In this document: in pieces, positions 12,197 through 60,372 of the stretch
Layout of the letters: every line of letters begins with the position of its first letter
Numbering within the stretch: position 1 is the first letter of the stretch
Source of the DNA: Bryoerythrophyllum caledonicum
Taxonomy: Eukaryota > Streptophyta > Bryopsida > Pottiales > Pottiaceae
Direction of reading: 5' to 3'
NCBI GenBank assembly: GCA_963971425.1
Contig: OZ020526.1
Location: 18,691,173 to 18,755,172 of the forward strand
Length of the DNA stretch: 64,000 bases
The notes under the pieces: generated by a model
What the model was told of the DNA's origin: nothing
The model's input: the letters and a program-made list of their open reading frames with translations, nothing else
The model's database searches: none
Program-made: the position numbers and the translations under genes

Positions 12197-12207
12197 ATAA
12201 AGCCCCA
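12197..12207. repeat. LINE target-site duplication, left copy
   Basis: ATAAAGCCCCA, identical to 20239-20249. These two copies define both ends of the LINE exactly. Confidence 0.9.
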
Positions 12208-12439
12208 GAAGAAGAAGAACGCCGGTCCCCGAATTTGGAGGCCGGCGTGAATAAAGTGTCCGTTCATTCCACCACTAAGTCCATGCCCACCGGGCATGGG
12301 TTAGTAGTATGGAACTACTTCCCCCTTTCGAGGGAGGACACTATGTACCCAGTAACAAGTAGCCAATATCAAAAGACCCAAGGTCCAAAAAGTCTCTTAA
12401 AGGAAGGAGGAAGTGTACGGTGAAGTTGTAAGTACAGGT
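12208..12439 (-). promoter_or_regulatory. LINE 3' UTR with RNA hairpin and (TTC)n tail
   Basis: Downstream of the TAG stop (12440-12442) the element has about 230 bp of 3' UTR. A hairpin at 12281-12299 has an 8-bp perfect stem around a 3-base loop; the equivalent in the 53-kb copy (53263-53279) keeps its stem through a paired C/G to T/A change. A second short stem (CCCT/AGGG) lies just 5' of it. The final bases are TTC repeats. LINE RTs commonly recognise 3'-end structures, so this is the likely RT-binding region. Confidence 0.7.
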
Positions 12440-15400
12440 CTATGGAGGGAGGTTCGATGCGTCAAGAAGGGGTTGGTTGTTCTCAAGTTTTCGTTTGTGT
12501 AGGAGTATCGACATAGCATGTTGAATTGCAATAGTGTTAATATTTGAAAAGGTGGTTTTGATTAAAGTGATGGGGATTTTAAATGTGTCTTCAAGGGTTG
12601 TCATTGAGGGAATGAAGGTGGTGGCTCTGGCTCCCGCGGTGATGACAATAAGGGGGTCTACTTTCCATCCTAGTGCTTGGATATCGTCAATTAGTGGTTG
12701 ATATTTATTTATTTTGTTTGTTATAGTGTCCGGAGAGAATCTATCATTACAATATGTAAATTCAATAAACTGAATAGTGAGACTAGGGTCTATGTGGTTT
12801 GGTGGGGGGTCTTTGTATGAAAGCCCTCGAACACATAGTAGGTCGGGTTTGAATCTCGCATTACATTGACATTTTCGAGTGTAACAGGTGCATGGTAATA
12901 GCCATGGCGGGACCGTATTTTCTTGTGGGTTGTCATTAAAGGTTCCGGCATTCATGAGAATGAAGCAACGGGATTTGGTTGATGATATAAGTAGTTTACG
13001 AATAGCCCATACGGCTTTGTTATGTCTTTTGACAATTAGTGAGTGAATATGGGGGTTTTGGCACTTGAGCAAGACATGTAGCCATGTGTCCGGGTCCGTA
13101 GTGTTGCAAATTGGACAGGTAATTGAAGGAAATCTTTCTATTCCAAAGAAGAGTTGTTTGCGGGCATTTCCCATGTATTGTCCGGCACGGAATTTGATTA
13201 GGCATGTGATTTGTGAATCTGTAATTGTGGGGTTTTGCCAGAAATTGTTGGACATTATGTTGTGGATATTTGGGTTGCCGGTCCATTTGTCAATATTGGG
13301 GAGATTTTCTGTGAGTTTTTCTAGGTTATTTGTAAGATCATGTTTTTTGAGGTATTTGTCTAAGAACCTTATGGGACCTTTGTCGGGAGTTTCGCTCATA
13401 GAGGGCCATTCATATCTATGAAAGTAGTATGGGGTGGCATGAGCGTGTTCATATGGGTGTTCGGCATTTTTGTGGGTTTTTTCTCTCCCTTCCTTTGCTA
13501 GTTTGTCAGCTTGTTCATTGCCGTCGATATTAGCATGAGCTCGGACTTTGTGGAGTGTAGTGATTTGTGTACGATTTTGGAGCATTTCAACCATTGATGT
13601 GAGGATAGTTTTGTCCGGGTGACTGTTGTGTAAGGTGGGGTGTTTTATGTGTGTATTAAGGAGATATAATACATTTATGCAATCTGTGAAAATGTGAGCT
13701 GGTTCGTTTGGGTATTGAGTGGTGATTATCTTAAGGGTTTTATGTATAGCCATCATTTCTGCTCTTAGAATATTTTGGAGTCCATGTAGTCTTTTACCTA
13801 ATTTAATTTGTTTGGTTGGGTTGTATATCCCATAACCGGCTTTTTCTCGGTGCCAATGTCCAGGGCTTACTTCGGTTGGTTCTTTAAAGGATCCGTCAGT
13901 ATAGTAGCAGAGGTTGGGGTCAAATTTGAGGTTGGTAGTAATTTGGTAATTGGGGAGTGGGAGGTTCATTATGGTAATTGGTAGTGCGGAGGTATTTGTG
14001 TGGGGGCTTTTGGCCCATTTTTTGTTACGGTTTACCCGGGTTGAGATAGGTGTGGGTGGGGCGATTGCGGTGTATACCTTGTTAATATTTAAATTTTTTG
14101 CTAGCAAAGTGAGATGAGTGAGGTTTTCTAGCGTACCTATTTCTCGGGTTTGGTGATGTATACATAGGATACGTAGGGTTGCTGGTTCAAGGCGTGGTGT
14201 TTGTATTTGCGGTGGAATAGTGGGTTCTGTGTAAATCATAGAATCTGCTTCAAATAATACTATGATGTGAGAGTCTGGGAATGGGCCTAAGTGTGGGTTA
14301 GAGTTCTGGTACCACTGAGTGTCGGGAGTAATAATAATGGTGATGTTGTGGTTTGGATCGTTATTTGCCGCTAGGCGTGCCCAATGTGTTGCTTGTTGTG
14401 TTTCTTCTTCGTTGTGAGGGTGTGCAAGGCCTATTCCACTCCACCTATAATCAAAAGCTTTTCCTAGAGAGCCAAAAACCTTATCACGTTCGAATGGAGA
14501 ATAGAATTTTGAAATCTTTGTGGAACATGTAACGGGGGAAGAGAAGTATGAATGTGTAATATTCAAGGATGTAATAAGGTAGTCTATGATAGGGTCGGGT
14601 AATGTATAGTGTGCATTTTTAAGGGGGTTATTTTTGGGTGTTCGATATTTATATCTTTGGTATAGCCAAACAATTTCAGTTTCAAATGTTTGAGGTGGTG
14701 GTTCAATGTTAATGGGGGTTTGTATTGTGTTTTGAAATTGGTTCCACAGCCATTGTAGTCTAGCGAGTGGTATAGTTATTAGGTGTCTACCATTATCTTC
14801 GTATATGTCGGCATTGTCTTGTTGTATTTTGATTGTATTTGTTTGTGTGAGGATGTCGGTTTCGGGGTTACATTCAGTTGTAAAGATGTTGAGGAGGGGG
14901 ATAACAAGAGGTGGCGTGACAAATCTACTATCTCGGGGTTGTGCTTGAGGGTGGTGTATTTTTATGATATTCAGGTAATAATTGTTTTGGGTTCTGAGGT
15001 AGTATTGTGTGAGGATTTCGGTGTTGTGTAAGGAAGCGTTTGGGTTGTGCCAAGGGAAAAGATTTCTTTGTGGGAACCATTTGGTGTAGGTGGTGTTATT
15101 GTGATGCCAATGGCAAAGGTATGACGTGTATTTTTTGCTTATGTTGTTAGAGTCACTATACTTTCTATGTTTGTGCGCGGTTATGTTGTTTATTGGGTGT
15201 ATGGAGGGATTTTTTAGTATATGTGGTGGGGGAGCATATGGTCGTGCATGTGATGGGTTTGGAGGGATTAGTGGAAGGTTGGTGTTAGGGTGGATGTCCC
15301 TGTGACCAATGATGTATGGTTCTTTAAGTGTGTAAGGTGGGGCGTGAATGGTGCAAGGGTATTGGCATATGGGGAGGCATGGTTGTTGACAAAATAATTG

Positions 15401-18400
15401 TTTAGCAATATTTAGTGCACTTTTTATTAACTTGTGGGGGGTACCGTAGAGTGTTTTATAGCTTTTGTCGTCCATTAGTTGTGTTCCATTTGGTAGTGTG
15501 ATTTGTTTTAGATCGGTAATATTGGCAGATAATAGTTTTTGTAGGAGTTTGTCGGATAATTGTCGGTCAAGTCTAGGGAGGTTATGTATTTCATTTGTCC
15601 AATTTTGTTCTAGCGGCGCGGGGTCTAGTAGGAAATCTTCTATTTGACTTTTTAGAAATGCTTGGCCTTCTGTTTTGAGTAGAAAAAGTGTGCGGGTAAT
15701 AGGAGACCTAAGGCAATCAAATTTTTTAAGTCTTTGGAGGTGTTGTGCACCTCCATGAATGGCAAGGATATGCCGAAGGAGTCCACTGTAGATTAGTCCT
15801 AGTCGTCCTTTGTCGTTAAGTGCATTTTGGAGTTGTTCTCCAATGCATCTTAGATAGGCATTTTTGAGGGAAAAAGCTTCTAATCCAAAAAGTTCGTGGG
15901 GGAGTTGTGTTATGATATTAGGTGTACATTTAGGGAGTCCGCATACTTTCTTTTGTAAGGCTGTGATTTTTTTGTCTAGTTTGTTTATGGCGGGCGTGGA
16001 ATAAGGGACCGCATAGAAGCTATATGCGATACCCGGACGTATAACGGTATCAATCATTTTTATTTTTTGTTTTAATGTGGCCGGGCATAGTGTAATTTCA
16101 TTACATTGTTTAATAAGTTTTGTAGTAGTAGCGTGAGTTTGAATTTTCCATTTTAACGATGGGACTAGGTTTATTCCAAGGTATATGTAGGGTTGGTTTT
16201 GGTTGAGTACCGGAATTGGTTGATTACGATATTGGATATTGGTAGCTTGGATAAGGGCTTTGAAGGCGGTAGGGTTTATTTTGGATTTGTTTGGGCATCC
16301 GGTTACGGCACATTTCTGGACCCCTAGTTCCATCCCGGTCCATAGACAAAATTTGTCTATTTTGTCTAATTGAATTTGGAGTGATTTAGGGCGTTCGGAG
16401 ATGGCCGCTAGATCGTCGGCATATGCAGCTGTGTTTATAGTGATTTTTGAGGTACCAAATGTGTAGCCATTATTACCTCTTTGAAGCCATCTCAATAAAG
16501 GTTCTAGAAAGATAATAAAGAGGTATGGACTCAATGTATCCCCTTGGATGGTGCCCCTTTGGATGGGGATAGGGCGTGTGTTACCAAAGAATTCTCCCGT
16601 GTATATAGTGGTGGATTGGGAGTAAATATTGCCAACCAGTGTGACTGCTTCTTCCGGGTATCCAAGATCACTCATAATGGCTAATAGTCGAGGATGGTCA
16701 ATGGAGCCGAATGCGTTTTTGAAGTCAATATAGAGTATGTAAATGTCTTTATTAGTAAATTTTGCATCCTCAAGAGCGGCAATAAGGGTTTGGAGTTGCC
16801 GTGTGGTGCTTCTCTCGGCTCTAAATCCTTCTTGACTTTCGTGTAATATTTGGTGTTTTTCCCCGTAGGCCGATAGTATTGATGTTAGTGTGCTAGTGTA
16901 TAATTTGTAAATGGTGTTAGCTAGGGCAATGGGACGGTGGTTAGGTAACTCGGATGGGTTACCTTTTTTGTATAATAAAATTGTTAGACTTGTTTTCCAG
17001 GATGCGGGAATGGATTTTTGTTTGTAACAGTGAAAGAAGAATAATGATAGAAGGTTATGAAATCTTGGAGGCATATTTTTTAGAATTGAGTTGGGTATAT
17101 GGTCCGGGCCGGGGGCTTTGTTGTTTCCCAAGTTTTTAAGGCACATGTTGTATGTGTCTCTGTTATAATATGTGTGGAGAGGTGTTGTTGGTTCGCCTCT
17201 TTTATCAATGGTAAATCCGTCCAAATCGTGCCACGGGTATTGCCTAGCTCCGCACGTGCATGTTAATGTGTGTTGTGGTTGGAAGTGGCATGGGGGGGTG
17301 GATGGTCTATTGTTTATGGATTGTTGAAAATGTATTTCGTTTGCGATGTCATCTGGGCTAGTTAGAATGTTGTTGTTTTGATCCAAGATGCAGTCAAGTG
17401 GCAGGTTTGTGTTGTTTTTAAAGACTTTTCTATTAATCTTTTTTGGGCTAGTTTCATATAAATGACGGTACTTCGAGATGGCTTTTTTGACGCATTCTCT
17501 TGTATATTTTGTAGTAATTTTTCGGGCTTCTTTGTTGGCAGTTTTTGCAATGGATGCAATGTCTTTTATCCATTCTTCGTGAGGGGTGTTGGGTAGTGGT
17601 GCTTGTGGGATTTGAGGATGTTGGAGGTTTTGTAGTTTGGAGAGTATGGGGTGGGATCGCCAGTTATGGTTAGTTTTAGTAATATAAATTGCTTTACGAA
17701 TAGTGTGGTATGTGATAAGATGTTGTTTCCATTTTTTGGCTAGTTTTCTCGGGAGATACCCCCCTTGTTTTGAGGTTCTAGATGTCAGTTGTGGAATCAA
17801 GGGTGCTTTACAAGTTTTTTCTATTATAGTCGAGATTTCAGTAATAAGTTTGTCAAGAGCTGTGCAAGCTTCTTGCCATTGTATGTGCGTGAGGTGTTGG
17901 TGGTTAGAGAGGACATTTGTGAGGGAGTCTATTTGTAGTGAGTGTTTTTCAAAGAACATTGTATTGAAGTTGTCAAGGTTTTCTTTTGGGATGGGGTTTA
18001 GTATTTTAATGTCATTTGAGTTGATGGTTGTGGGAGGTCTACTTATAAGGGTGTTGTGAGGTATATTGAGTTGGATTGGGAAGTGGTCCGAGTTTAAGTT
18101 AGTTGTGGTATTGGTGGTAGATGTATAACGGGTGTGGTTAGGTGTTTTAATGTAGAATCCATCGATTAGGCTAGTATGTGTGTAATTAAGTCCACCTTGA
18201 CGAGAGTATTGTGTATCGGTTGGGATTAAGCATAATTCTAGGTCCTCCGTATAATTTTTCCATTGATAGTCTACGTCGAGTGGGGGGGTAAGAACTTCTC
18301 CGTTTTGTCTTCCAATAAGGGCTATGTCACGGTTAAAGTCTCCGCATAGTACTATTGTATGGTTGGTGTGTATATTTATTTGCGAAGTGATGGAATTTTG

Positions 18401-19474
18401 GATTACCGGAATAAGCCTAAGGTCTTCTATGTGCGAAGGCATGTATAGATGGAGGATGAGCCATGGTTGGAGGGGACGATTATTAATTACAATAATTTGA
18501 AGGTATGGTGATATATTAGTTGGGGTAGGGATTTTAGTAATATTCCCTGGGAAGGCGTATGATTGGTGTATGAGCATGAGTAGGCCTCCTCTTGCCGGCG
18601 TGTATGGCCTTCTTTGTTGGATGCATCTTGTGAGAGAATGGGTATTATTAAATATAAGTTTATAATCGGGAAATGTTTTTTGGATGTATTTTGTGGATTT
18701 AGTAGCGGTTAGTTTGGTTTCTTGTATGGCAATTATGGCGGGTGGTGTGTTGGTGTAGGTGGTTAGTTTGTGGATGCATGGTAAAGCGGTGTTTAGCGTT
18801 GAGGCGTTCCATGTAGTTATGTATGTCTTTCTATTATCTATGTTGTCTTGGTTTCGGAGTGGGGGGGGAGTGAAGGCGGGTGTCGGGGTGGGGTGTGTGT
18901 AAGCGTGGATTGGTTCAGAGCATCTAAGAGCTTCAGAGATGAGATTCTGTGGGAAATAGGGGAATATTAGTTGTAGTTCATCGGGGGAAGGGGGTGAGGT
19001 TTGGCTATGGATAAAGTTATATAGTTCATTGTGTAGAGAGGTTTTGCGTTCAAAGAGGTGTCGGTTTTCCTCTAGGAATTTAGTGTATGGGTGGAGTGTA
19101 TCTATATGTCTTTCGGGGGGGTTATGTAGGGAGTTTAAGGTGTTTAGTAATATATTTGTCCAGTGAGTTGGGTTTGTGTTGGTGGAGTGTTGGTTGGTGA
19201 TATTGTTGCATTCTTCTATTGAAGGGTGGAGGGTGGTAATTATGGCGAATAGAATATGTGTGGATGGGTGGTTGTTTTTTTGAAGTATGTAGCGGGAAAT
19301 GTTAGGGTATAGGGTGGAGTAGGCTTGGTGAAGTATGTGGTTATTTTTTAGAAGTGGCGCAAAGGAAGATGCTAGGTGTTGGTATTCGGGATGTAGTTTT
19401 ATAGTGTTCGGAATGAAGTATATTTTTGATAATCTTTTGTGTGTTTTTGGGTGGTTGAGGAAGACGTTTGGCAT
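12440..19474 (-). CDS. LINE ORF: endonuclease / reverse transcriptase / RNase H polyprotein
   Basis: 2,344 codons from the first ATG in the element (19472-19474) to TAG. Domains by residue from that Met: APE-like endonuclease about 210-475 (motifs W-N, Q-E-T, R-G-G, G-D-F-N, S-D-H); reverse transcriptase about 770-1030, ending in Y-A-D-D; a conserved domain of uncertain type about 1655-1780; RNase H about 1857-1995; a Cys/His finger about 2118-2145. All expected catalytic motifs are present and no frame break was seen, so the protein may be functional. It would nick target DNA and copy its own RNA there. The reading frame stays open upstream through a 2A-like motif and the Asn/His-coding repeat to beyond 20257, but contains no ATG there. 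Confidence 0.93.
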   Translation of the reverse strand: MPNVFLNHPKTHKRLSKIYFIPNTIKLHPEYQHLASSFAPLLKNNHILHQAYSTLYPNISRYILQKNNHPSTHILFAIITTLHPSIEECNNITNQHSTNTNPTHWTNILLNTLNSLHNPPERHIDTLHPYTKFLEENRHLFERKTSLHNELYNFIHSQTSPPSPDELQLIFPYFPQNLISEALRCSEPIHAYTHPTPTPAFTPPPLRNQDNIDNRKTYITTWNASTLNTALPCIHKLTTYTNTPPAIIAIQETKLTATKSTKYIQKTFPDYKLIFNNTHSLTRCIQQRRPYTPARGGLLMLIHQSYAFPGNITKIPTPTNISPYLQIIVINNRPLQPWLILHLYMPSHIEDLRLIPVIQNSITSQINIHTNHTIVLCGDFNRDIALIGRQNGEVLTPPLDVDYQWKNYTEDLELCLIPTDTQYSRQGGLNYTHTSLIDGFYIKTPNHTRYTSTTNTTTNLNSDHFPIQLNIPHNTLISRPPTTINSNDIKILNPIPKENLDNFNTMFFEKHSLQIDSLTNVLSNHQHLTHIQWQEACTALDKLITEISTIIEKTCKAPLIPQLTSRTSKQGGYLPRKLAKKWKQHLITYHTIRKAIYITKTNHNWRSHPILSKLQNLQHPQIPQAPLPNTPHEEWIKDIASIAKTANKEARKITTKYTRECVKKAISKYRHLYETSPKKINRKVFKNNTNLPLDCILDQNNNILTSPDDIANEIHFQQSINNRPSTPPCHFQPQHTLTCTCGARQYPWHDLDGFTIDKRGEPTTPLHTYYNRDTYNMCLKNLGNNKAPGPDHIPNSILKNMPPRFHNLLSLFFFHCYKQKSIPASWKTSLTILLYKKGNPSELPNHRPIALANTIYKLYTSTLTSILSAYGEKHQILHESQEGFRAERSTTRQLQTLIAALEDAKFTNKDIYILYIDFKNAFGSIDHPRLLAIMSDLGYPEEAVTLVGNIYSQSTTIYTGEFFGNTRPIPIQRGTIQGDTLSPYLFIIFLEPLLRWLQRGNNGYTFGTSKITINTAAYADDLAAISERPKSLQIQLDKIDKFCLWTGMELGVQKCAVTGCPNKSKINPTAFKALIQATNIQYRNQPIPVLNQNQPYIYLGINLVPSLKWKIQTHATTTKLIKQCNEITLCPATLKQKIKMIDTVIRPGIAYSFYAVPYSTPAINKLDKKITALQKKVCGLPKCTPNIITQLPHELFGLEAFSLKNAYLRCIGEQLQNALNDKGRLGLIYSGLLRHILAIHGGAQHLQRLKKFDCLRSPITRTLFLLKTEGQAFLKSQIEDFLLDPAPLEQNWTNEIHNLPRLDRQLSDKLLQKLLSANITDLKQITLPNGTQLMDDKSYKTLYGTPHKLIKSALNIAKQLFCQQPCLPICQYPCTIHAPPYTLKEPYIIGHRDIHPNTNLPLIPPNPSHARPYAPPPHILKNPSIHPINNITAHKHRKYSDSNNISKKYTSYLCHWHHNNTTYTKWFPQRNLFPWHNPNASLHNTEILTQYYLRTQNNYYLNIIKIHHPQAQPRDSRFVTPPLVIPLLNIFTTECNPETDILTQTNTIKIQQDNADIYEDNGRHLITIPLARLQWLWNQFQNTIQTPINIEPPPQTFETEIVWLYQRYKYRTPKNNPLKNAHYTLPDPIIDYLITSLNITHSYFSSPVTCSTKISKFYSPFERDKVFGSLGKAFDYRWSGIGLAHPHNEEETQQATHWARLAANNDPNHNITIIITPDTQWYQNSNPHLGPFPDSHIIVLFEADSMIYTEPTIPPQIQTPRLEPATLRILCIHHQTREIGTLENLTHLTLLAKNLNINKVYTAIAPPTPISTRVNRNKKWAKSPHTNTSALPITIMNLPLPNYQITTNLKFDPNLCYYTDGSFKEPTEVSPGHWHREKAGYGIYNPTKQIKLGKRLHGLQNILRAEMMAIHKTLKIITTQYPNEPAHIFTDCINVLYLLNTHIKHPTLHNSHPDKTILTSMVEMLQNRTQITTLHKVRAHANIDGNEQADKLAKEGREKTHKNAEHPYEHAHATPYYFHRYEWPSMSETPDKGPIRFLDKYLKKHDLTNNLEKLTENLPNIDKWTGNPNIHNIMSNNFWQNPTITDSQITCLIKFRAGQYMGNARKQLFFGIERFPSITCPICNTTDPDTWLHVLLKCQNPHIHSLIVKRHNKAVWAIRKLLISSTKSRCFILMNAGTFNDNPQENTVPPWLLPCTCYTRKCQCNARFKPDLLCVRGLSYKDPPPNHIDPSLTIQFIEFTYCNDRFSPDTITNKINKYQPLIDDIQALGWKVDPLIVITAGARATTFIPSMTTLEDTFKIPITLIKTTFSNINTIAIQHAMSILLHKRKLENNQPLLDASNLPP
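13040..13130 (-). other. C-terminal Cys/His zinc finger of the LINE protein
   Basis: C-P-I-C, then a spacer containing D-T-W-L-H, then K-C and H-I-H. This matches the finger found downstream of RT/RNase H in several LINE clades, where it contributes to nucleic-acid binding. The 58-kb copy keeps the arrangement (C-S-I-C, then D-T-W-L-Q, K-C and H-I-H), though its first His is Gln. Confidence 0.7.
13480..13910 (-). other. RNase H domain of the LINE
   Basis: Carries the catalytic residues in order: Y-Y-T-D-G-S-F (near 13890-13905), R-A-E-M-M-A-I, F-T-D-C-I-N and V-R-A-H-A-N-I-D-G-N-E-x-A-D. The last, His-containing motif indicates the complete D-E-D-D type with a basic loop. It would remove template RNA during element synthesis. 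Confidence 0.88.
14140..14540 (-). other. Conserved extra domain between RT and RNase H, possibly methyltransferase-like
   Basis: The protein here shows S-P-F-E-R-D, F-G-S-L-G-x-A-F, a G-x-G-L-A-H-P-H segment, a W-A-R-L-A-A helix, then a hydrophobic strand I-I-I-T-P-D. The order recalls the PCIF1-like / N6-adenine methyltransferase layout (FGSxGS, then NPPF, then a strand with P). The expected NPPF is replaced by AHPH, so activity is doubtful. The decayed copy at 57-60 kb keeps the same motifs, including AHPH. Family assignment is a guess from pattern. Confidence 0.4.
16390..17180 (-). other. Reverse transcriptase domain of the LINE
   Basis: Shows K-A-P-G-P-D, P-A-S-W-K-T, N-H-R-P-I-A-L, the Y-I-D-F-K-N-A-F aspartate motif, Q-G-D-T-L-S-P and A-Y-A-D-D-L (near 16412-16425). 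All catalytic aspartates are intact. A thumb-like region continues to about 15900. Confidence 0.92.
18030..18850 (-). other. APE-type endonuclease domain of the LINE
   Basis: Motifs in order along the protein: T-T-W-N-A-S (near 18822), I-A-I-Q-E-T-K, A-R-G-G-L-L-M-L, L-C-G-D-F-N, then L-N-S-D-H-F-P (near 18078). These are the metal-binding and catalytic signatures of the exonuclease-endonuclease-phosphatase fold used by LINEs to nick DNA for target-primed reverse transcription. Confidence 0.9.
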
Positions 19475-19525
19475 TGGTCCTGGGTTAGTTTCTATGTCTC
19501 CAGAGAGTATAATTAATAGTTTGCA
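19475..19525 (-). promoter_or_regulatory. 2A-like ribosome-skipping motif just before the LINE ORF's first ATG
   Basis: In frame with the ORF, the encoded peptide is C-K-L-L-I-I-L-S-G-D-I-E-T-N-P-G-P, immediately followed by Met. This fits the 2A consensus (D-x-E-x-N-P-G-P preceded by a hydrophobic helix), which makes ribosomes release the chain between Gly and Pro and continue. 2A motifs are known in some non-LTR retrotransposons of animals and trypanosomes. The odd point is position: no ATG in any frame occurs in the element upstream of it, so its translation would need non-AUG initiation, readthrough from flanking sequence, or an N-terminal part missing from this copy. Confidence 0.85.
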
Positions 19526-19556
19526 GTGTGTAATGTCTATGACTGCAAGTCGATGG

Positions 19557-20238
<682 letters not shown>

Positions 20239-20249
20239 ATAAAGCCCCA
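20239..20249. repeat. LINE target-site duplication, right copy
   Basis: ATAAAGCCCCA, directly abutting the outermost unit of the CAA/TTG repeat. The repeat is therefore the true 5' end of the inserted element and not flanking host sequence. Confidence 0.9.
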
Positions 20250-21989: not shown

Positions 21990-24900
21990 TTGAAAGTGAG
22001 AATGCTAAGAGCATTGAGAAGTTCAAAGATGAGAACTTTAGCCTTTGGAAGTTTACAATTGAGATGGTGTTGTAGTCCATGGATTTTAGGAAAATTGTGG
22101 AAGGCAACGAGGAACCTCTATTCAAGAACGACGATCCGAAGGTAGTGAAAGACTACAATCGGCGTGTCAAGAAGGCCGTGACCATCATCGAGCTCAATTT
22201 GGCGGACAATCAACTTGCCGACATAAGGAGTTGCAAAGGAGTTGCGGAAGCATGGAAGTTGTTGTGCAACATCCACGAAACCAATAGCTTGTTCAACATC
22301 CTCTTCATTCGCCGTAAGTACTTAACAATTAAAATGCAAGAAGGTGATGATATGATAACACACATCAAGAAATTGAAGGAACTTGCGGATCAACTTAACT
22401 ACTTGGAGGTCCTCGTAAAAGATGAAGATATCGTCATGACCTTGCTTGAGAGCTTGTTGCCATCGTTTCAGAGCTTGATCAGGGCCTTGGAGACATTGAG
22501 ATTCGAGGACCATATGATGGAGTTTGTTACCGCCCGAATGATGGACGAAGTGTCGAAACGCAAGGAGAGGGAAGTTTATGGCAATGATGCGGCATTGGTT
22601 TCAAGGCCAAACAAAGTGGGCAACTCGTCATCACAAGGAGAGCCCAAATTGTGTTACAATTGTGGCAATCGGGCCACCTTGCGCAAAATTGCTTCAAGGC
22701 AAAGACATGGGAGCGCGACAACGCAAATCAAGCGAAAGAGAAGGAGGGTGCCAACCATGCAAAAGACGATGATGTTTACAACCCAAGATGGATCTTATTT
22801 CAAGTCCACGTGTAAGTGGATCTTGGATTTGGGTGCCACAAAACACATGACACAACATAGGGTGGCATTTCAAACGTATGAGATAATTCCACCACGCAAT
22901 GTGCATTTAGGTGATGATAGTGTCGTGAACGCCATTGGAATTGGATCCATTGTGGTGGAAGTACTTGTTGGAGGGCATCCAAGGAAGATAATTATCAACG
23001 AGGTCCTCCATGTGCCAAAGATGCAAGCAAACTTGCTCTCGGTGAGCAAACTTGTGCCAAGTAGATTGAATGTACAACTCAATGTAAATGGGTGTACATT
23101 GAAAGCATTGAATGGAGTTGTAATTGTTGTGGCACCGCGTGAAGCCAATTTGTACCAAGTGACCTTCACAAAGGTGCACAAGGCGGATGTGGCTAACGTA
23201 GTACAATCATCAACGAACAATGGTGCAATAGAGCTTTGGCATCATCGACTTGGGCATTTGAATGTGAGGAATGTGTGCTTTCTTCAAACCATGGTAAGTG
23301 GGATGACCCTGGGCAAGGATGACTTGTCTATCTCATTTTGTGAAGGGTGTGTGCAAGGAAAACAATATAAAATCCCATTTCCAAAGGATGAAGGAACCCG
23401 TGCCACCAAGCCTTTGGAGATTGTGCATTTGGATGTGTGCAATTCTATGAGGACGACGTCTATCGATGGTGCAAGGTACTTTGTGACCTTCATCGATGAC
23501 ATTTCAAAGAAGGTGTCGTTGTACACGTTGAAGACAAAAGGGGAGTGCCTTGAGAAGTTCAAGGAGTTCAAGGCACTTGCGGAGAAGCAATCGGAGGAGA
23601 AGATCAAGGCGTTTCAGTCGGACAATGGCGGGGAGTTCATATCGTTGAGGCCTTTCAAGGATTTTTGAAGAAGCATGGCATCGAGCGGCAAACATCAACA
23701 CTATTCACGCTAGAGCAAAATGGAGTGGCAGAGCATGCCAATCACACCACTGTAGAGATGGCAAGGAGCACGATTCAACGCCTCAAGCTCTAGTTTTGGG
23801 CGGAAGTGGTAACCAATGCGGTGTACATTTGCAATTGGTGTCCAACACGGGCTCTTGTCACCATGATACAGCAAGAGGCTTGGAGCCGCTGTAAGCCATG
23901 CATTGCACACATGCGTGTGTTTGGATGCATTGCTTATGCAAAGGTGCCTGATGCATAGAGGGGCATACTTGATACAAAAGGGACCAAGTGTTTATTCCTT
24001 GGATATTGTAAGGGCACCAAGGCATATTGTCTCATGTGTGTTGAGACAAAAAATATCATTAGGAGCTATGATATTGCGTTTTATGAGGATATCACTATTG
24101 TTAGTGATGGTTTGGAAATTTGTTCAAGTGGAAGTAGTGAGACACCATCATTAATTTTGGTGGACAAATCTTCCAAACCAACTCGTACAAGTATGAGTGA
24201 AGATGATGATTGCAAGACGGAGGAAATGGTGTTTGATAACGAAGAAGCCACAAACGAAACGCCTTCACCAACAACAATGGCCAAGCCGTGTAGAAGAAGA
24301 TGGAAACATCCAAGAGCCTCGATATCCAAGAAGGGAACGGCGACCGCTTGGCAATTGGTGGATGAACCACATCTTGCCACAACATGAAGGAGAAGGCGCC
24401 AACATGGCCACCCTCAAGGATCCATTGAACTTGTATGAGGCAATGCGCTCCGAGGATGCGAGTTAGTGGGAGGCGGCCATACAAGAGGAGTATGACTCAC
24501 TTATGGTGAATGAAATGTGGGAGTTGGCTCTGCTTCCGAAAGATCCCAAGAGCGTTGGGTACAAGTGGATATTTTGCACAAAAAATGATGCTTTGGATGA
24601 AGTTGTGCGGCACAAAGCAAGATTGGTGGCTAAAGGATTCTTGAAAGTTGTCGGAGTTCAATTCCATGAGACATTTGCTCCCATTGCAAAGTTCAACACC
24701 ATTTGGTGCATCCTTGCGCTTGGAGCAGCGCTCAATTTGGAGATCCACCAAATGGATTTGAAGATCCACCAAATGGATTTGAAGACCGCATTTTTGAATG
24801 GCGAGTTGGAAGAAGACATCTGTATGAGCCAACGGCAAGGCTTTGAGAAGAAGAACTTTGAACATCTTGTGTGCAAACTTAAGAAGTCATTTCACGGACT

Positions 24901-25963
24901 CAAGCAATCACCAAGAGCATGGTACCAACGAATCGACTAATTTTTCATCAAAGAGGGCTTTACAAGAAGTGAAGCGGATCACTCCTTATATGTCAAGCAA
25001 ATAGATGAGTACTTGTTGATAGTACTCATCTATATGGATGACTTGATCATCTTGGCTAGCCTTCTGGCAAAGTTGATGTGGCTCAAGGGCAAGCTCGACA
25101 CAGAGTTTGACAAGACCGATTTTGGCGAGTGGAAGTATTGTCTAGGTGTGGAATTTGTGAGGGACCGCAAGACACGGACCATCACCATGAGTCAAAGGAA
25201 GTACATTGAGGGGGTGCTCAAGTGCTTCAACATGGAGGAATGCAAGCTCATTGGTACACCACTTGATGTGAATGCCAAGTTGTTGAAACTCTTGGAGAAA
25301 GAGTTTTAGGCCATTCAAGGTGAGATGGATGGCGTGCCATACAAGTGTGGAGTTGGATCCTTGATGTATGCCATAATAGGCACACGGGCCGACCTTGCAT
25401 TTGCGGTGAGCATGCTGAGCCAATTCATGTCTAAGGCTGATCCGACACATTGGAGTACCGTGAAGCGCATCACGCGGTACTTGTAAGGTACTATAGACCA
25501 CAAATTGTGCATTGGTGGTAAGGACATTGCTTTGAGGGGGTATTGCGATGCGGATTGGGCCGGAGACGTCAACGAACGTCGTTCGGCAACGGGATATGTA
25601 TTCTTTGTTGGAGTTGGTGCCATCTCGTGGAATTGCAAGAGGCAACCAACCATTGTGTTGTCCACGACAGAGGCGGAGTACGTGGCAACTAGCCAAAGTA
25701 CGAAGGATGTCATTTGGCTTCGTAAGCTTTTGGCGGATGTTCGCTTTGTTCAACAAGGAGCAACGACCATCATGTGCGATAATCAAGGATGCATTGTTCT
25801 TGAAAAGAACCCGACACACCACTCACGCACGGAGCACATCGATGTGCAACACCACTTCATTTGCAAGAAGTTGGAGAGTAATGAGATAAGCTTAAAGTAT
25901 TGTCCAACAGAGGACACGGTGGCGGATGTGTTGACAAAGGCACTTGCTAGAGAGCGATATTAA
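21990..25963 (+). pseudogene. Copia gag-pol polyprotein remnant
   Basis: Gag frame runs from about 21990, with a TAG at 22073-22075 just before the ATG at 22079. The gag zinc knuckle near 22655-22705 is split by a one-base frameshift after its first two Cys. Protease near 22815 has D-L-G-A in place of the usual D-(S/T)-G. The pre-integrase HHCC region (about 23230-23360) and the first half of integrase (about 23400-23640) follow, then a stop; the rest of integrase is broken. RT lies at 24500-25310 with Y-M-D-D intact; its aspartate motif region carries a 21-bp tandem duplication. RNase H at 25320-25963 keeps C-D-A-D-W-A and T-E-A-E-Y. Further stops interrupt RT and RNase H. Non-functional. 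Confidence 0.9.
24743..24784 (+). repeat. 21-bp tandem duplication inside copia RT
   Basis: ATCCACCAAATGGATTTGAA plus one base occurs twice in a row, duplicating seven codons (I-H-Q-M-D-L-K) that carry the first catalytic Asp of RT. It is in frame, and expected to disturb the palm. Confidence 0.95.
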
Positions 25964-35030: not shown

Positions 35031-38000
35031 ATGTTCGCAGGGTCAGCTTTGCACAAGTATTATGCCCGGATGCCTAGTACAGGCTCTTCTTCGTCTAGTT
35101 CAGTGCTACCGCAAGGAATCAGCACTACTATGGCTGGCACTAGTAGCGCGTCTCTGGAGCCTTGTAAATCTATGGAAATCTGTAAGTCTGTCGAAGTCCC
35201 AAGTCAGTTGCCGTCGGTTTAATCCTGCTATAAGGCTAATCCAACCATCCGATGTTGTCCCTTCCATGCCTGCTTTGAGTGCTGATGTCATTGAAGTTGT
35301 GCAATTGTCGTCGGATGGATCCACTGTCTGTTCCACTGCCACTCTGGTGGACAAAGGGAAACAAAAAGTTGTAGAGTTTGAGGATTTAAGATCCGACTCT
35401 GATCGAGAAAACCCCTTTACTCCCGGTCCAATTGCTGTGAAGAAGACGAAAAGGTCGTATGAGGCTTCTCGTAGGTTTCAAGAGTCCTGGGTTGCGCATC
35501 TACCTTGGGCCGAGTTGTTCAAAGACGAGAAGGGTCAGGATTCAGTGAGGTGTCTTGTCTGTACCTCTATTGACGGTCGAGATAAAACAATGGCTGCCAA
35601 GATGGATACGCTCCAAAAGCACGCTGGAAAACGAAAAGCGACAAAGGATTTGAGGAACGGCGTGAAGAAAGACCAATGGTATGTTGATAGAAACTATAGG
35701 CACCTTCGGAATGAGCGGATTTATGCAGGCCAACAGCACACCACTGTGGTGGAGCAAGTCTGCGCAGTCAAAGGAGAGCGAGCTCGGAAGAGAATCCAAT
35801 TCGCTACAATTTTGCACCTCCTCCATGAAGGGCGCCCCATGCAGGAGTACACCGCCCTTGAGTCGCTGTTCACCTTCCTCGCGGTTCCAAAGCTACCGAC
35901 GCGCCATTGGACCGGCACAGCGGGGTGGGACTTGGTGGTCTGTCTGTACGAAGAGGTCCAGGAGAAAACACGGTAGGTCATGTGGCAGACTCGTGTCTTC
36001 TCCATAACGTGTGATAAAGTTACCACCTTAGACACTCAAAGCTGGATCTCAGTCCACGGCTATATCTGAGAGTCTTGGCAACGACGAGCTGTGCTCCTGT
36101 CACTAGAACGCGTTGTGGAGGACGCAGGAGTAGATCACTTGACAAAGGTGCTAGTAGAGGCCACGACAACATTTGTTGGAATCCCCAACGACGAACTCGC
36201 CACCAAGCTGGCGTCTTTTGGTGCTGGTAAGCCTCATGTGCTCGTGTCTTTGCAATATGCATGTGACTCGTGAGCTAGTCATTGCATGATGTATTCTAGC
36301 TCCCTTATGGATTTGTTAAATGAATGTGTGTGCTTGTGTCTTTGCAATATGCACGTGAGCCAGTCATTGCATGATGTACTCCAACTCCCTTATGGATTTG
36401 TTAAATGAATGTGTGTGCTCGTGTCTTTGCAATATGCATGTGAGCTAGTCAGCACATGATGTATTCCAGCTCCCTTATGGATTTGTTAAATGAATGTGTG
36501 TGCTCGTGTCTTTGCAATATGCATGTGAGCCAGTCAGCACATGATGTATTCCAGCTCCCTTATGGATTTGTTAAATGAATGTGTGTGCTCGTGTCTTTGC
36601 AATATGCATGTGAGCCAGTCATTGCATGATGTATTCCAGCTCCCTTATGGATTTGTAAAATGAAAATGTGTGTGCAGATGGAGTAAGCACGTTTCAAGGC
36701 AAACGAAATGGAGTAGTACAGCAACTCATGCACAAGTTTGCACCGAGGCTTCTAGGGATTCACTGCATGGTAAGGATGTGTTTTCAGATGCATTGTACTC
36801 ACTGTTTAGGGCTCTGCATGTGAGCGTTGTAACGTGTGCATTAATTTCGGTGTGCCTTGTTTTGTGTTGTGAAGGCACATAGGACGAACCTGGCTGTTCA
36901 GACATTGAGTGACCTGCCGGTGGTATCTCGGATAGAGGACATGCTGGCTTCACTACACCGTTTCTTTGCTCCCTCACCGAAAAGGCACTTGCAGTTTCAG
37001 AAGTTGACAGCGCTAATGGACTCCATAGGATTGAAGATCCTAAAGAATGTGAAAACTCACTGGATTTCAATGCTCTCCCCTACTGTGAGGGTGATGAACG
37101 AGTACAATGTTCTTCTGGTGAAGATGGATGGAGACTCTCGTGTAGTCCCTGTCACAGACGGCGTGACTAAGGGGAAGAAAGATAAAGGCTTGAGGAAATT
37201 GGCTATCAAGAACCTAGGATTCCTGACGGACATCAAGATCCTTTTGGGCCTCTGAGCCTTACTCCCTCTTCTGCGTTCAGTCCAATCCCTGCTGAAATTT
37301 GCCCAAAGTCGTGAGCAGTTTGTTTGTGATTATATTGCTGCCATCTCATGTTGTATTGCGGAGGTGCAGGCATTCTACATCGACTCCAATGCCTTTACAC
37401 AAGAGATTTTTTGGGACTTCACGGCCTTGGTGGAGACAAGGCACGACCATATTCCATTGAGCTGGGTTGTGAGCGACGCCTTGGATTTGAACTCGGTGGG
37501 CGGGCAGGAGACCCTACATTTTACTCCAGTCGGCCACAATATCTCAGTTGTCCATGTAGCAGCTGATGGCAGTGTTTTCCCTGTTACCCGTGACTCCTAC
37601 GTCGCAATTTGTCGGGAGGTGAAGCGGATGTGCGCAGGTATGGTTGCTTGCCCACCGAGTTCAAGTTTTATCTGCGATGTTGTCCTTCAAATCGTAGATA
37701 ATAAAATGATTTATGTATCTTGTAGGTGCTGCCAAGACACTTGTGGAGGAATTACAGGCAAGTTTCCATGCGTCGACTTTGATGGACGCGTTTGGGTTTG
37801 TATACCCATAGTACTGGCTGAAGGAGGATGCAGAGTCGAATTTTGAGAAGCACCTGTAAATTATCAAGGAGCACTATTGCTATAAGAAGAATTTCAATGA
37901 GAAGGCAAAAGACTCGAAGAAGCGTAAGGAAGTGGATATTGAGCAGTTGGAGAGAAATGGAGGAGAAGAAGGAAGCGGTTCCCATACAAGGGTTGGAGCG

Positions 38001-53178: not shown

Positions 53179-53654
53179 AGAGAGAAGAAGAAGAAAAATA
53201 AGAGTTCCGGTCTCGGAAGGGGCCGGAGTGAATGAAGTGTCTGTTTGTTCCACCACTAAATCTATGTCCCTCGGACATAATTTAATAGTGTGGAACTACC
53301 CCCCTTCTTGAAGATAGATATTATGTAATCAGTAACCAAGAACCAAAGACTAAGTAGAGCCATAGGGCTCAGTTCCAAGAGATGATCTATAGAGGTTAAA
53401 TGTGTGTTTTGAGAGGTTTTAAGGGGGGATCATGTAATTTGCGGAGGGGTTGGTTATTTTAAAGTTTTTGTTTGTGTAGAAGTATGGACATCGCATGTTG
53501 GATAGCAATGGTGTTAATTTTAGAGAATGTCTTTCTAACTAGATTAATGGGGATATCAAACGTTTTTTCAAGACTTGTCATAGAGAGGATAAAGGTAGTA
53601 GCTCTAGCTCCAACGCTACTGAAAATAAGGGGGTCAACTTTCCATCCAAAACAC
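53179..53654 (-). mobile_element. 5'-truncated LINE copy (about 0.48 kb)
   Basis: Has the (TTC)n tail, 3' UTR with hairpin (53263-53279) and the C-terminal end of the ORF (53459-53650), then stops abruptly, as expected for incomplete reverse transcription. Possible 11-bp duplication: GCAATCAAATA (53168-53178) and GCAATTAAACA (53655-53665), two mismatches. The truncated frame is not functional. Confidence 0.85.
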
Positions 53655-55871: not shown

Positions 55872-57133
55872 GGAACTCCATGGAATCGTCTAGGATCTCA
55901 TGGGAACGTGGCTAGGATTTTTTAGTTTAGGGTTTGGGTTCCTAGTGGCGGCGGCTAGGGTTTGGATCTGTGGCGGCTAGGGTTGAGGTTTCTGGGCTGA
56001 TTTGTGTAGCTATATCCACAGACTCAGTGTCATACTCTGTACTACACTCATGGCTTCAGTTGTAGTGGTTTTGATGTCACTCAGTACACCGTTCCGTGAA
56101 TATAGTGTAGACCAGACTATTTAAAATTTCCTACACTAATTGAAAATTTAGGTGCAATTGTTGACTGAGACACACTTGCTTGAGAAGATATACTCAATCA
56201 GAACTTGGCATGCACATGCTTTGATGGAAATTAGTGTGAGTGATCTACATCAATAATCCCTCTACACTATATTCAGTGTTTAGTGTAGTTGATGTCTCCG
56301 ATCATATGTAAACATTCAACTTGTTTTGAATTTGATAATTTGAACATATTATTTGGTACCTTTTTGTGTGTTGAGCTGCCTATTTCTAGTTCAGCAATAA
56401 TCCATGTCCGGGGCCAGCGGGTGGAGAAAGTGCAATGTATTTGGAGTGCAGGCTGAAAGCAAGATTCGCATTCTTCAATCGGCAAAGGCTCACATACTAC
56501 AATATGTTGCAATGCAAACCGAAGCTATCGATGACGACCGTTTGCAAGCAGCCCTAAATTCTATGGAGTAGATAGTGTGCCTTTATGAGAGTATACTAGT
56601 TGTGTATGGTAATTGCTATATAGTGTATGTGTAAAAGTAGTAAATTCTAAGAGTGATGTAAGACATTATGTCATTAATCCATAGAGTAAAGGTGTTTTTA
56701 CTATTGGTGCTAAGTCCATTTGTAGAAGCATCTACATTTAGTTTCTACCATTGTATGCATTATGTACTACGTTAGAATATATTTTAATCATCTGCCAACC
56801 CTTGCATGAAGTGTATTTTTTTGTGATTACACCTGTTTGAATACTACAATCCTTCAAATTTATCTTTGAAATATTGTGAAACTATATTAAATACACATTT
56901 ATCTAGTATTAACGAGGGGCCACCAAAAATTAGTTGAAAGTGCCAAAAATCGCTTCCAATGTTAACAACCATGATTGTACACAATATTGTTGCAAAAACT
57001 CATTTTTTTTTCTTTGAAAAAACATTTTTTTTCTTCAATTTTGTCACTTTTGCTTGCAATGGCCGTTGTTGTACCTAAGTGCACTTTTATTTGGTGAGTG
57101 AAAAATTGCTTAATTGCGTGTTCCAAGTGCTAC
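55872..57133. other. Spacer with one small ORF
   Basis: An ATG-started 55-codon frame at 56404-56571 (plus), containing G-W-R-K and an amphipathic stretch, matches nothing I know. A 34-bp phrase (CTCAGTGTCATACTCTGTAC...) near 56022 repeats one inside the TIR element at about 55572. The rest is AT-rich with no gene seen. Confidence 0.35.
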
Positions 57134-57347
57134 AATGTCATTATTAAGTGGTTGATATTTATTAATTTTATTTTCAATTGCTTCTGGGGAAAATCCGTCA
57201 TTGCAATATTTGAATCCTATAAATTGGGTAGTAAGGTTTGTATTTATGTAGTCCGGTAGGGGGTCTTTACATGGTAGTCCTTTGGTGCATAGTCTCTTTG
57301 GTTTAAATCTGGCATTATTATGACATCTTTGGGTATCACATGTGCAG
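57134..57347 (-). mobile_element. LINE internal fragment (A)
   Basis: Matches the LINE ORF near 12667-12890 (C-terminal coding region) but lacks the 3' UTR. It stops exactly where the (TTC)n tail of the next copy starts. Confidence 0.75.
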
Positions 57348-59780: not shown

Positions 59781-60372
59781 TTAATCCCTAAAGGACCAAG
59801 ACATTTTCCCCTCAAAATCACTCCAAAACTGCCATTTCAGCGCATTCAACACGAAATGATACAAAATGTTTTTTTTGAAAATTTAACCGTGGGATCTTGT
59901 ACTAGAGTTGTACAAAAGTGTGTGGTGAAAATTTTGGTAAGTTTGACCGCACAGATTGAAAGATATTAGCCTTTGAAGTGAGATATAATCACTTTTTGAG
60001 GTCATACTATACACCTTCAACAAACTTCGACCACCTTCTATCGCAACTTTATGCACTATGGGCCGTGAATTTATTAAGTTAACTTGAAAAAGATCATGTT
60101 AGGCACATGTGCACCAAATTTTAGAAGTAGAAGAGGTGTAGAAGATGTCCTAAAAAATCATGCAATGCAACTATGTGCTGAGAATCAACAATACACTTTA
60201 TATTTTGCATATACCATATCCTTCTCAAATTTTTGAAATTCACAAATCCGTATGAAAGATGCAAATATCTCAATTTCCTTTCCAAGAGGGAACTTTCTTT
60301 CTTTTAAATGGACAAAAACTCGAATTTCTATTGAATTCAGAAGTTATTAAGTCACAGTATTTGTGATATGTC
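59781..60372. mobile_element. TTAA element R3, partial copy inside LINE B
   Basis: TTAA at 59781-59784, then TCCCTAAAGGACCAAGACAT and about 590 bp nearly identical to 45471-46075, differing by scattered substitutions and a short deletion near 60352. The other terminus is missing; sequence changes abruptly after GATATGTCACAC. Confidence 0.8.

What the first reader, a model, noticed from the sequence alone, without database searches (positions are those of the whole stretch)
19475..19525. 2A ribosome-skipping motif in a plant-genome LINE, ending right before the element's first AUG
The LINE frame encodes a canonical 2A C-terminus (G-D-I-E-T-N-P-G-P after a hydrophobic run) directly followed by the first Met of the element. 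2A-bearing LINEs are documented in animals and trypanosomes; I know of no well-described plant case. No ATG in any frame lies between the element's 5' end and the motif, so if it is translated, initiation is unconventional, or this copy has lost an N-terminal ORF.
Basis: partly seen in the sequence, partly recalled or inferred. Interest (0 to 1): 0.92.

Follow-up and report, generated by a model that had tools for sequence, protein, structure and literature searches.

The report
2A ribosome-skipping LINEs in a moss
A moss genome carries well over a thousand copies of a jumping gene whose enzyme is preceded by a virus-like "2A" signal that should make ribosomes skip a peptide bond, in elements whose two genes also appear to be joined by a change of reading frame.

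Summary
The minus-strand frame encodes HCKLLIILSG-DIETNPGP, then Met. It lies in an 8,031-bp LINE insertion (12208-20238) bounded by an 11-bp target-site duplication.

The window copy is 5'-truncated inside a CAA-repeat tract, so no ATG lies upstream. Most other fetched copies continue to 4.6-6.9 kb before the 2A, and many carry an ORF1.

The host is a moss, judged by its LEAFY gene. The D(I/V/M)ExNPGP coding pattern occurs 1,717 times in the 437-Mb genome; the reversed control occurs twice. In 20 of 20 loci sampled by motif, Met follows directly, and the 2A frame is open further upstream than either other frame. Core codons vary synonymously. The leucine-rich context resembles a published active 2A class.

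In 27 of 27 ORF1 3' ends examined (few lineages), the frame leading to the 2A crosses the ORF1 stop in the -1 frame, near a conserved NCA AAC. In one lineage that -1 tail is conserved as protein down to about 40% identity. I infer ORF1, then a -1 shift, tail, 2A and ORF2.

Against it: no canonical slippery heptamer, no universal hairpin, and only 8 of 18 tail/2A pairs share one frame. The youngest subfamily shows no ORF1 in the one copy read. Neither skipping nor shifting was tested.

The parts
12208..20238 (-). LINE insertion, 8,031 bp, 5'-truncated inside the CAA-repeat tract
   Evidence: bounded by an exact 11-bp direct repeat; most other fetched copies extend to 4.6-6.9 kb before the 2A
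12197..12207 (.). target-site duplication, ATAAAGCCCCA
20239..20249 (.). target-site duplication, ATAAAGCCCCA
19562..20238 (-). CAA / CAACCA-type repeat tract (Asn/His runs in the 2A frame), AUG-free
19475..19564 (-). 2A (StopGo) region, 30 codons, ending HCKLLIILSGDIETNPGP
19475..19498 (-). 2A core octapeptide DIETNPGP; the predicted skip is between the last G and P
12440..19474 (-). ORF2 from the Met after the 2A, 2,344 aa, no internal stop
18074..18814 (-). endonuclease domain (IQETK, GDFN, SDH motifs present)
   Evidence: Pfam PF14529 E 2e-5 and PF03372 E 4e-4, both under the curated cut-offs; motifs
16169..16960 (-). reverse transcriptase domain, with YADD
   Evidence: Pfam PF00078 E 7e-31; PDB R2 chain 9nl3 E 4e-32; YADD
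14315..14698 (-). PCIF1-like (cap-adenosine methyltransferase-like) domain; AHPH where PCIF1 has NPPF
   Evidence: Pfam PF12237 E 7e-10, 39.2 bits, cut-off 31.1; alignment to PCIF1 chain 6irx, E 0.18
13484..13912 (-). RNase H domain
   Evidence: Pfam PF00075 E 5e-12

Best explanation
This is a 5'-truncated copy of an abundant APE-type LINE of a moss. ORF2 (endonuclease, RT, PCIF1-like domain, RNase H) is meant to be released from whatever is translated ahead of it by 2A/StopGo skipping: the ribosome omits the Gly-Pro bond of NPG/P and goes on, so ORF2 protein starts Pro-Met. In full-length copies of several families, ribosomes reach the 2A by a -1 change of frame at a conserved NCA AAC at the end of ORF1. 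They translate a low-complexity tail, and the 2A then cuts the product into ORF1-tail-2A and ORF2. SHOWN by sequence: the LINE, its truncation, a conserved 2A with free synonymous change, ORF1 upstream in other copies, the -1 overlap, a conserved -1 tail protein in one lineage. INFERRED: actual skipping, the actual -1 shift, and the purpose (making little ORF2 protein per ORF1 protein, and freeing it from ORF1).
For: 2A: 1,717 genome-wide matches against 2 in the control. Met directly after NPGP in 20 of 20 loci sampled by the motif, although Met was not in the search pattern; core codons vary synonymously (four Pro, four Gly and three Ile codons seen); 26 of 27 distinct sequences have Gly before the core, most after a Leu/Ile run. 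This resembles the LLLLSG-like class of PMC12846837, of which motif 6 was active in their assay (section 10 read). The 2A frame is open further upstream than both other frames in 20 of 20 loci; stops number 73 in 4,400 codons against 251 and 243 in 4,380 each. Link to ORF1: the -1 frame crosses the ORF1 stop in 27 of 27 ORF1 3' ends examined (overlap 16-226 nt), each with in-register NCA AAC, the CAAAC beginning 5, 8 or 11 nt before the stop. TCAAACGTGGATTGA is identical in 16 of 16 ORF1 ends of one lineage; the 18-nt pattern occurs 270 times against 0 in the control. The -1 tail gives 107 protein matches at about 40-98% identity besides itself, 51 of the 107 without stops. In three tail pairs it has 0 stops in 294-296 codons against 13-21 in the other frames. 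In 12 of 19 other copies of the window's family and its nearest sister groups that hold the motif, the frame is open from the ORF1 overlap to the 2A.
Against: No X XXY YYZ slippery heptamer: the P-site codon NCA cannot re-pair well in -1. Folding after the site is strong in three subfamilies (z -3.7 to -4.6) and moderate in L043 (-2.8), but weak in L035, L036 and L044 (-0.3 to -1.1) and absent in the SNVD lineage (14 sequences, z -0.85 to 1.5). Only 8 of 18 tail/2A pairs share one open frame, and only 4 of 9 site-to-2A pairs on contig C1 are in the -1 frame (hand arithmetic; 9 of the 16 listed C1 sites could be paired). An L075-like family has long ORF2 frames (2,423, 2,379 and 2,092 aa) although its tail frame breaks before the 2A. 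The youngest subfamily (33 of 131 listed matches with exactly 3,087 aa open) shows no ORF1 within 5.1 kb in the one copy read, and has in-frame AUGs 171-263 codons before the 2A; L034 shows no ORF1 there either. In the CAA-tract families the tract changes frame in some copies (L012). Tail dN/dS is only mildly below 1 (0.59-0.84) and clearly the lowest of the three frames in only three of seven comparisons.
Confidence: 0.68

Rival explanations
1. ORF2 is started at its own AUG (the Met right after NPGP), by scanning, reinitiation or internal entry through the AUG-poor, unstructured CAA- or A/C-rich tract; the 2A matters only when some ribosomes come through from upstream.
For: Met follows NPGP in all 27 distinct sequences; the window's tract is AUG-free; the L075-like family keeps long ORF2 frames although its tail frame is broken, and 10 of 18 tail/2A pairs are in different frames.
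Against: The 2A residues upstream of that Met and the -1 tail are conserved as protein; a never-translated leader would not keep D(I/V)ExNPGP with free synonymous change.
Confidence: 0.3
2. The tail-2A-ORF2 frame is its own cistron, started at an upstream in-frame AUG or a near-cognate codon; ORF1 is separate, and the -1 overlap is a relic of compact packing.
For: In the one copy read of the young ORF1-less subfamily five in-frame AUGs lie 171-263 codons before the 2A; some copies of the window's family have in-frame AUGs before the CAA tract (L009, L010, L013).
Against: In group B (L019-L026) no in-frame AUG lies between the ORF1 stop and the 2A; the -1 frame opens only 16-22 nt before the ORF1 stop in several families, just ahead of the conserved NCA AAC.
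Confidence: 0.3
3. The NPGP motif is not active in skipping; the region is kept as a signal-sequence-like or other N-terminal peptide of ORF2.
For: The run before the core is hydrophobic; 2A-like N-termini can double as signal sequences (PMC4981915, passages including the abstract).
Against: Core and upstream residues both resemble the active consensus; a signal sequence would not need NPGP, yet 1,260 of 1,540 places with the flanking codons keep exactly NPGP.
Confidence: 0.07
4. The motif is a chance or artefactual match in one repeat.
For: None found.
Against: 1,717 against 2 genome-wide, spread over several divergent subfamilies with different codons.
Confidence: 0.01

Closest known systems
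[quoted passage not shown] 2013, PMC3708506; not held, known from citations and recall) and L1Tc of Trypanosoma cruzi (Heras et al. 2006, seen as a citation in PMC11512398)
   Same: 2A/StopGo peptide in frame with the proteins of a LINE.
   Different: Land-plant host; 2A abuts ORF2's Met; ORF1 overlaps in the -1 frame and a tail leads to the 2A; PCIF1-like domain between RT and RNase H. How the animal elements compare on these points is recalled, not checked.
StopGo/2A of RNA viruses, LLLLSG-like class (PMC12846837, section 10 and passages)
   Same: D(I/V)ExNPGP core after an L-rich run; 15 of 27 distinct sequences end in (S/C)G before the core.
   Different: 11 of 27 end in GG and one in CR, not in the (A/S/C)G of that class; it sits in a cellular transposon of a plant, whereas that paper finds no evidence of natural StopGo in plant viruses and only rare use in cellular genes.
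Gag-Pol -1 frameshifting of retroviruses; HeT-A and TART of Drosophila (PMC5009743, passages)
   Same: A downstream enzyme ORF overlapping the end of the upstream ORF in the -1 frame (Gag-Pol case).
   Different: No canonical slippery heptamer or universal structure found; products would be separated by 2A, not by a protease.
L1 and RTE LINEs of land plants (review PMC9033089, passages)
   Same: Endonuclease and RT; RNase H often present; 5' truncation.
   Different: ORF1 has no convincing Pfam match; a PCIF1-like domain and a 2A are present; the RT scores higher to R2 chains than to other PDB RTs, so clade membership is open.

Membership tests
2A / StopGo peptide | core D(V/I)ExNPGP | tested here: met
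   window and 19 of 20 similarity-chosen copies; 1,717 matches in the genome
2A / StopGo peptide | supporting upstream context (L-rich, small residue and G before the core) | tested here: met
   26 of 27 distinct sequences have G at -1; Leu/Ile runs in most, weak in L044, L045 and L048
2A / StopGo peptide | lies inside a translated frame between two coding parts | tested here: met
   by sequence only: frame open furthest in 20 of 20 loci; conserved tail protein upstream in one lineage
2A / StopGo peptide | skips the Gly-Pro bond during translation | not testable with these tools
   needs a reporter
APE-type LINE | APE endonuclease plus RT in one ORF | tested here: met
   RT clear; endonuclease below Pfam's own cut-offs, but E 2e-5 and with its motifs
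APE-type LINE | 5'-truncated insertion with target-site duplication | tested here: met
plant L1 or RTE clade | RT groups with L1 or RTE | tested here: inconclusive
   only PDB comparison was available; no reference set for a tree
programmed -1 ribosomal frameshifting | downstream ORF overlaps in the -1 frame | tested here: met
   27 of 27 ORF1 3' ends, from few lineages
programmed -1 ribosomal frameshifting | X XXY YYZ slippery heptamer | tested here: not met
   shared element is N NCA AAC; only the second codon is of the usual type
programmed -1 ribosomal frameshifting | downstream stimulatory structure | tested here: inconclusive
   z -3.7 to -4.6 in three subfamilies, -2.8 in L043, weak in L035, L036, L044, none in 14 SNVD sequences
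programmed -1 ribosomal frameshifting | trans-frame product | not testable with these tools
   needs a reporter or mass spectrometry
PCIF1 cap methyltransferase | catalytic NPPF motif (recalled) | tested here: not met
   AHPH in both window copies

The most novel reading that the evidence does not exclude
A plant retrotransposon family that expresses its polymerase by two recoding events in series: a -1 frame change at a non-canonical, linear NCA AAC signal at the end of ORF1, followed several hundred codons later by StopGo. It would be a protease-free Gag-Pol strategy, in which a low-complexity tail and the 2A replace a viral protease, and it is present in hundreds of copies.
Probability: 0.45. 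Interest if true: 0.85.

Novelty: new variant of a known kind. Interest (0 to 1): 0.74.

Why it matters
StopGo is described as mainly viral, rarely used in cellular genes, and without evidence of natural use in plant viruses (PMC12846837, abstract and passages). Here a land-plant genome holds the motif 1,717 times with free synonymous change, in elements that include a large set of near-identical copies with long intact frames. That gives a natural plant test bed for StopGo, many naturally varied 2A peptides, and a directly testable case of how a LINE makes two proteins from one RNA. How ORF2 is translated is unsettled even for mammalian LINE elements, where an unknown, AUG-independent start is considered likely (PMC5009743, passages).

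Tried and rejected
Rejected: a chance motif. Rejected: that the window's CAA tract is the element's true 5' end; it is a truncation point. Looked for a common RNA structure after the shift site: not universal. Looked for a canonical slippery heptamer: none. ORF1 identity: no convincing Pfam or PDB relative. Viral contigs: 12 stretches matched a pattern, none encoded a relative of the RT. Odon et al. 2013 is not held. A PCIF1-LINE link in print: no such paper seen in the listing. Literature searches for a plant 2A LINE (listings, plus abstract, a section or passages of PMC12846837, PMC4981915, PMC11512398, PMC5009743, PMC7466625 and PMC9033089) showed none; the Rao et al. survey cited in PMC12846837 was not seen, so absence from print is not established.

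Weak points: the 20 loci L033-L052 were chosen by the motif, so their core is invariant by selection; only Met, upstream context and frame are independent there. They all come from contig C1, because only the first places of the list are printed. The 27 ORF1 ends come from few lineages and are not 27 independent cases. My first junction count used only 52 of the 107 tail rows; one search repeats it with all 107. My first tail/2A count used 27 of 131 rows; one search uses all 131.

Full report
WHAT IS IN THE WINDOW. On the minus strand one frame is open from 20347 to 12440. It reads ...HCKLLIILSG-DIETNPGP-MPNVF..., with the 2A core at 19498-19475 and ATG at 19474. An exact 11-bp repeat, ATAAAGCCCCA, at 12197-12207 and 20239-20249 bounds an insertion of 8,031 bp. 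ORF2 from that Met is 2,344 aa without a stop. It has endonuclease motifs, a reverse transcriptase with YADD, a PCIF1-like domain and RNase H. The endonuclease scores lie under Pfam's own cut-offs.

THE 5' END. The insertion begins inside a CAA-type repeat tract. Between there and the motif there is no ATG in any frame. In most of the 20 other copies fetched, homology goes on to 4.6-6.9 kb before the 2A (L015 and L017 only to about 1.2-1.3 kb), and the two read in full have a long ORF1 there (L023, L010); the ORF1 end is found in 19 of the 20 copies by DNA match, all but L015. So this copy is 5'-truncated, as LINE copies usually are, and its missing start is simply lost.

THE HOST. The window lies in G000, 437 Mb in 894 contigs. 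Of seven LEAFY-family matches one is strong. It has Asp and Cys at the two positions that mark the moss type (recalled from the LEAFY literature), and its best PDB match is 4bhk, LEAFY homolog 1 (of Physcomitrella by recall). I take the host to be a moss, and not P. patens itself, because a few residues differ.

HOW COMMON AND HOW CONSERVED. The D[I/V/M]ExNPGP coding pattern has 1,717 matches, the reversed control 2. Of 21 copies chosen by DNA similarity (the window and 20 others of the 46 rows), 20 have DIETNPGP and one has NLGP. Twenty loci chosen for codon diversity from the printed, contig-C1 part of the list have the same ORF2 start, though several are broken soon after, with DIET, DIEK, DIEQ, DIEA, DIEI and DVET forms, and all 20 have Met directly after NPGP. 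Over 40 sequences (27 distinct), every core codon position varies synonymously, Gly precedes the core in 26 of 27 (the residue before that is S in nine, C in seven, G in eleven), and a Leu/Ile run precedes in most. Of 1,540 places with GDIET-(any four codons)-MP(N/K)-type flanks, 1,260 have exactly NPGP and 280 do not. A protein search with 2A plus 225 aa of ORF2 scored 149 of 4,200 candidates; all 149 matches begin at query residue 10 or earlier and so reach into the 2A.

IS THE REGION BEFORE THE 2A TRANSLATED? In the 20 diverse loci the 2A frame is open further upstream than both other frames in 20 of 20; stop codons number 73 in 4,400 codons against 251 and 243 in 4,380 each. The sequence is mostly A-rich and G-poor, yet the other frames have stops, so composition alone does not explain it.

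LINK TO ORF1. Where I could read the ORF1 end, the frame leading to the 2A opens in the -1 frame and overlaps the ORF1 stop: group A 22 nt, group B 121, L036 112, L043 22, L044 37, L040/L075/L047 16. In all 27 ORF1 ends examined the -1 frame crosses the stop, and in-register NCA AAC is present, its CAAAC beginning 5, 8 or 11 nt before the stop. The -1 frame runs on further than the +1 frame in 23 of 27, ties at the end of the fetched sequence in three (L068, L069, L073), and is shorter in one (L018). In one lineage (ORF1 ending SNVD) TCAAACGTGGATTGA is identical in 16 of 16 ends, 12 of them from copies whose ORF1 is 63-75% identical to the query; the looser 18-nt pattern occurs 270 times, control 0. 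In L075 the -1 frame opens 4 nt before TCAAAC and stays open for 406 codons. That 406-aa tail finds 107 matches in the genome (some are two pieces of one copy), at about 40-98% identity besides itself; 51 have no stop, among them six at 42-45%. Of 49 tail matches that begin at the junction and have an ORF1 match just upstream, 38 are in -1, nine in +1 and two in 0; of the 39 whose ORF1 match reaches the junction, 38 are in -1 (all 107 rows). The -1 count is partly built in, because both queries come from -1 copies; what it shows is that indels at the junction are rare.

RESULTS AGAINST A SIMPLE MODEL. Comparing the open-frame lengths of all 107 tail matches and all 131 listed 2A/ORF2 matches, 18 places have both, and in 8 of 18 the lengths agree, so one frame holds both (for example C2:12168510, 2,177 aa; C6:25320545, 1,228 aa); in ten they differ. 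On contig C1, 4 of 9 shift-site/2A pairs are in the -1 register (hand arithmetic; seven more of the 16 listed C1 sites had no listed 2A near). L075-like copies keep ORF2 frames of 2,092-2,423 aa with the tail frame broken. The youngest subfamily, with 33 of 131 listed matches at exactly 3,087 aa, shows no ORF1 in the one copy read (L052, 5.1 kb upstream), and L034 shows none either; L052 has in-frame AUGs 171-263 codons before the 2A. It could make leader-2A-ORF2 by ordinary initiation. In the window's family and its nearest sister groups, 12 of 19 other copies with the motif are open from the ORF1 overlap to the 2A; L011, L012, L015, L016, L018, L027 and L028 are not. RNA folding after the site is strong in three subfamilies (L010, L023, L041; z -3.7 to -4.6), -2.8 in L043, weak in L035, L036 and L044, and absent in 14 SNVD sequences. 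dN/dS in the tail frame is 0.59-0.84; it is clearly the lowest of the three frames in three of seven comparisons, about equal in the three with L061, and not the lowest in L075-L059; the comparisons with L061 and L059 also hold 2-5 stops in the tail frame.

MECHANISM. Best supported: StopGo at NPG/P releases ORF2 protein from an upstream translated part (about 0.85 that it skips). How ribosomes arrive is less sure. I favour a -1 shift at the end of ORF1 in the ORF1-bearing families (about 0.55) and ordinary upstream AUGs in the ORF1-less subfamily. Initiation at ORF2's own Met may add to both.

KNOWN OR NEW. 2A-bearing LINEs are known from animals and trypanosomes (Odon 2013 and Heras 2006, seen as citations). 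PMC12846837 (section 10, abstract and passages) calls StopGo rare in cells and finds no evidence for natural use by plant viruses. PMC9033089 (passages) names only L1 and RTE LINEs for plants. The P. patens study PMC7466625 (passages) reports two LINEs; no 2A is mentioned in the passages seen. My searches showed no plant 2A LINE, which does not prove there is none in print. I class this as a new variant of a known kind.

Noticed in passing
window 14315-14698 (minus); second copy near 59587-59638: ORF2 carries a PCIF1-like (cap-adenosine methyltransferase-like) domain between RT and RNase H, with AHPH in place of NPPF in both copies; a LINE with a captured, probably inactive, RNA-methyltransferase fold.
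   Followed up: partly
window 57122-59784 and 53192-53647 (minus): Fragments about 70% identical to the 3' part of the LINE: at least one more member of the family, lacking the 5' part.
   Followed up: partly
L034+L053, L055+L040 and L056+L052 (G000 contig C1): In-frame, decayed extra copies of the 2A, in two cases with the first codons of ORF2, lie upstream of the intact 2A, as if the 2A-start module was duplicated in tandem.
   Followed up: partly
L056+L052 (C1:7110200-7116100) and 33 places: A young, nearly identical subfamily with a single 3,087-aa open frame including the 2A; no ORF1 found in 5.1 kb upstream of the one copy read; possibly a single-ORF derivative that borrows ORF1 protein.
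   Followed up: partly
L010 and other group A and B copies: The CAA tract between ORF1 and the 2A varies from a few hundred to over 1,000 nt; CAA repeats recall the TMV omega leader (recalled), so it might also help ribosome entry.
   Followed up: no
window 22076-25963 (plus): A degenerate Ty1/copia-type LTR retrotransposon reading frame beside the LINE (by reading only).
   Followed up: no
window 36270-36675: Tandem array, 85-bp unit, 4.8 copies, 94% matches.
   Followed up: no
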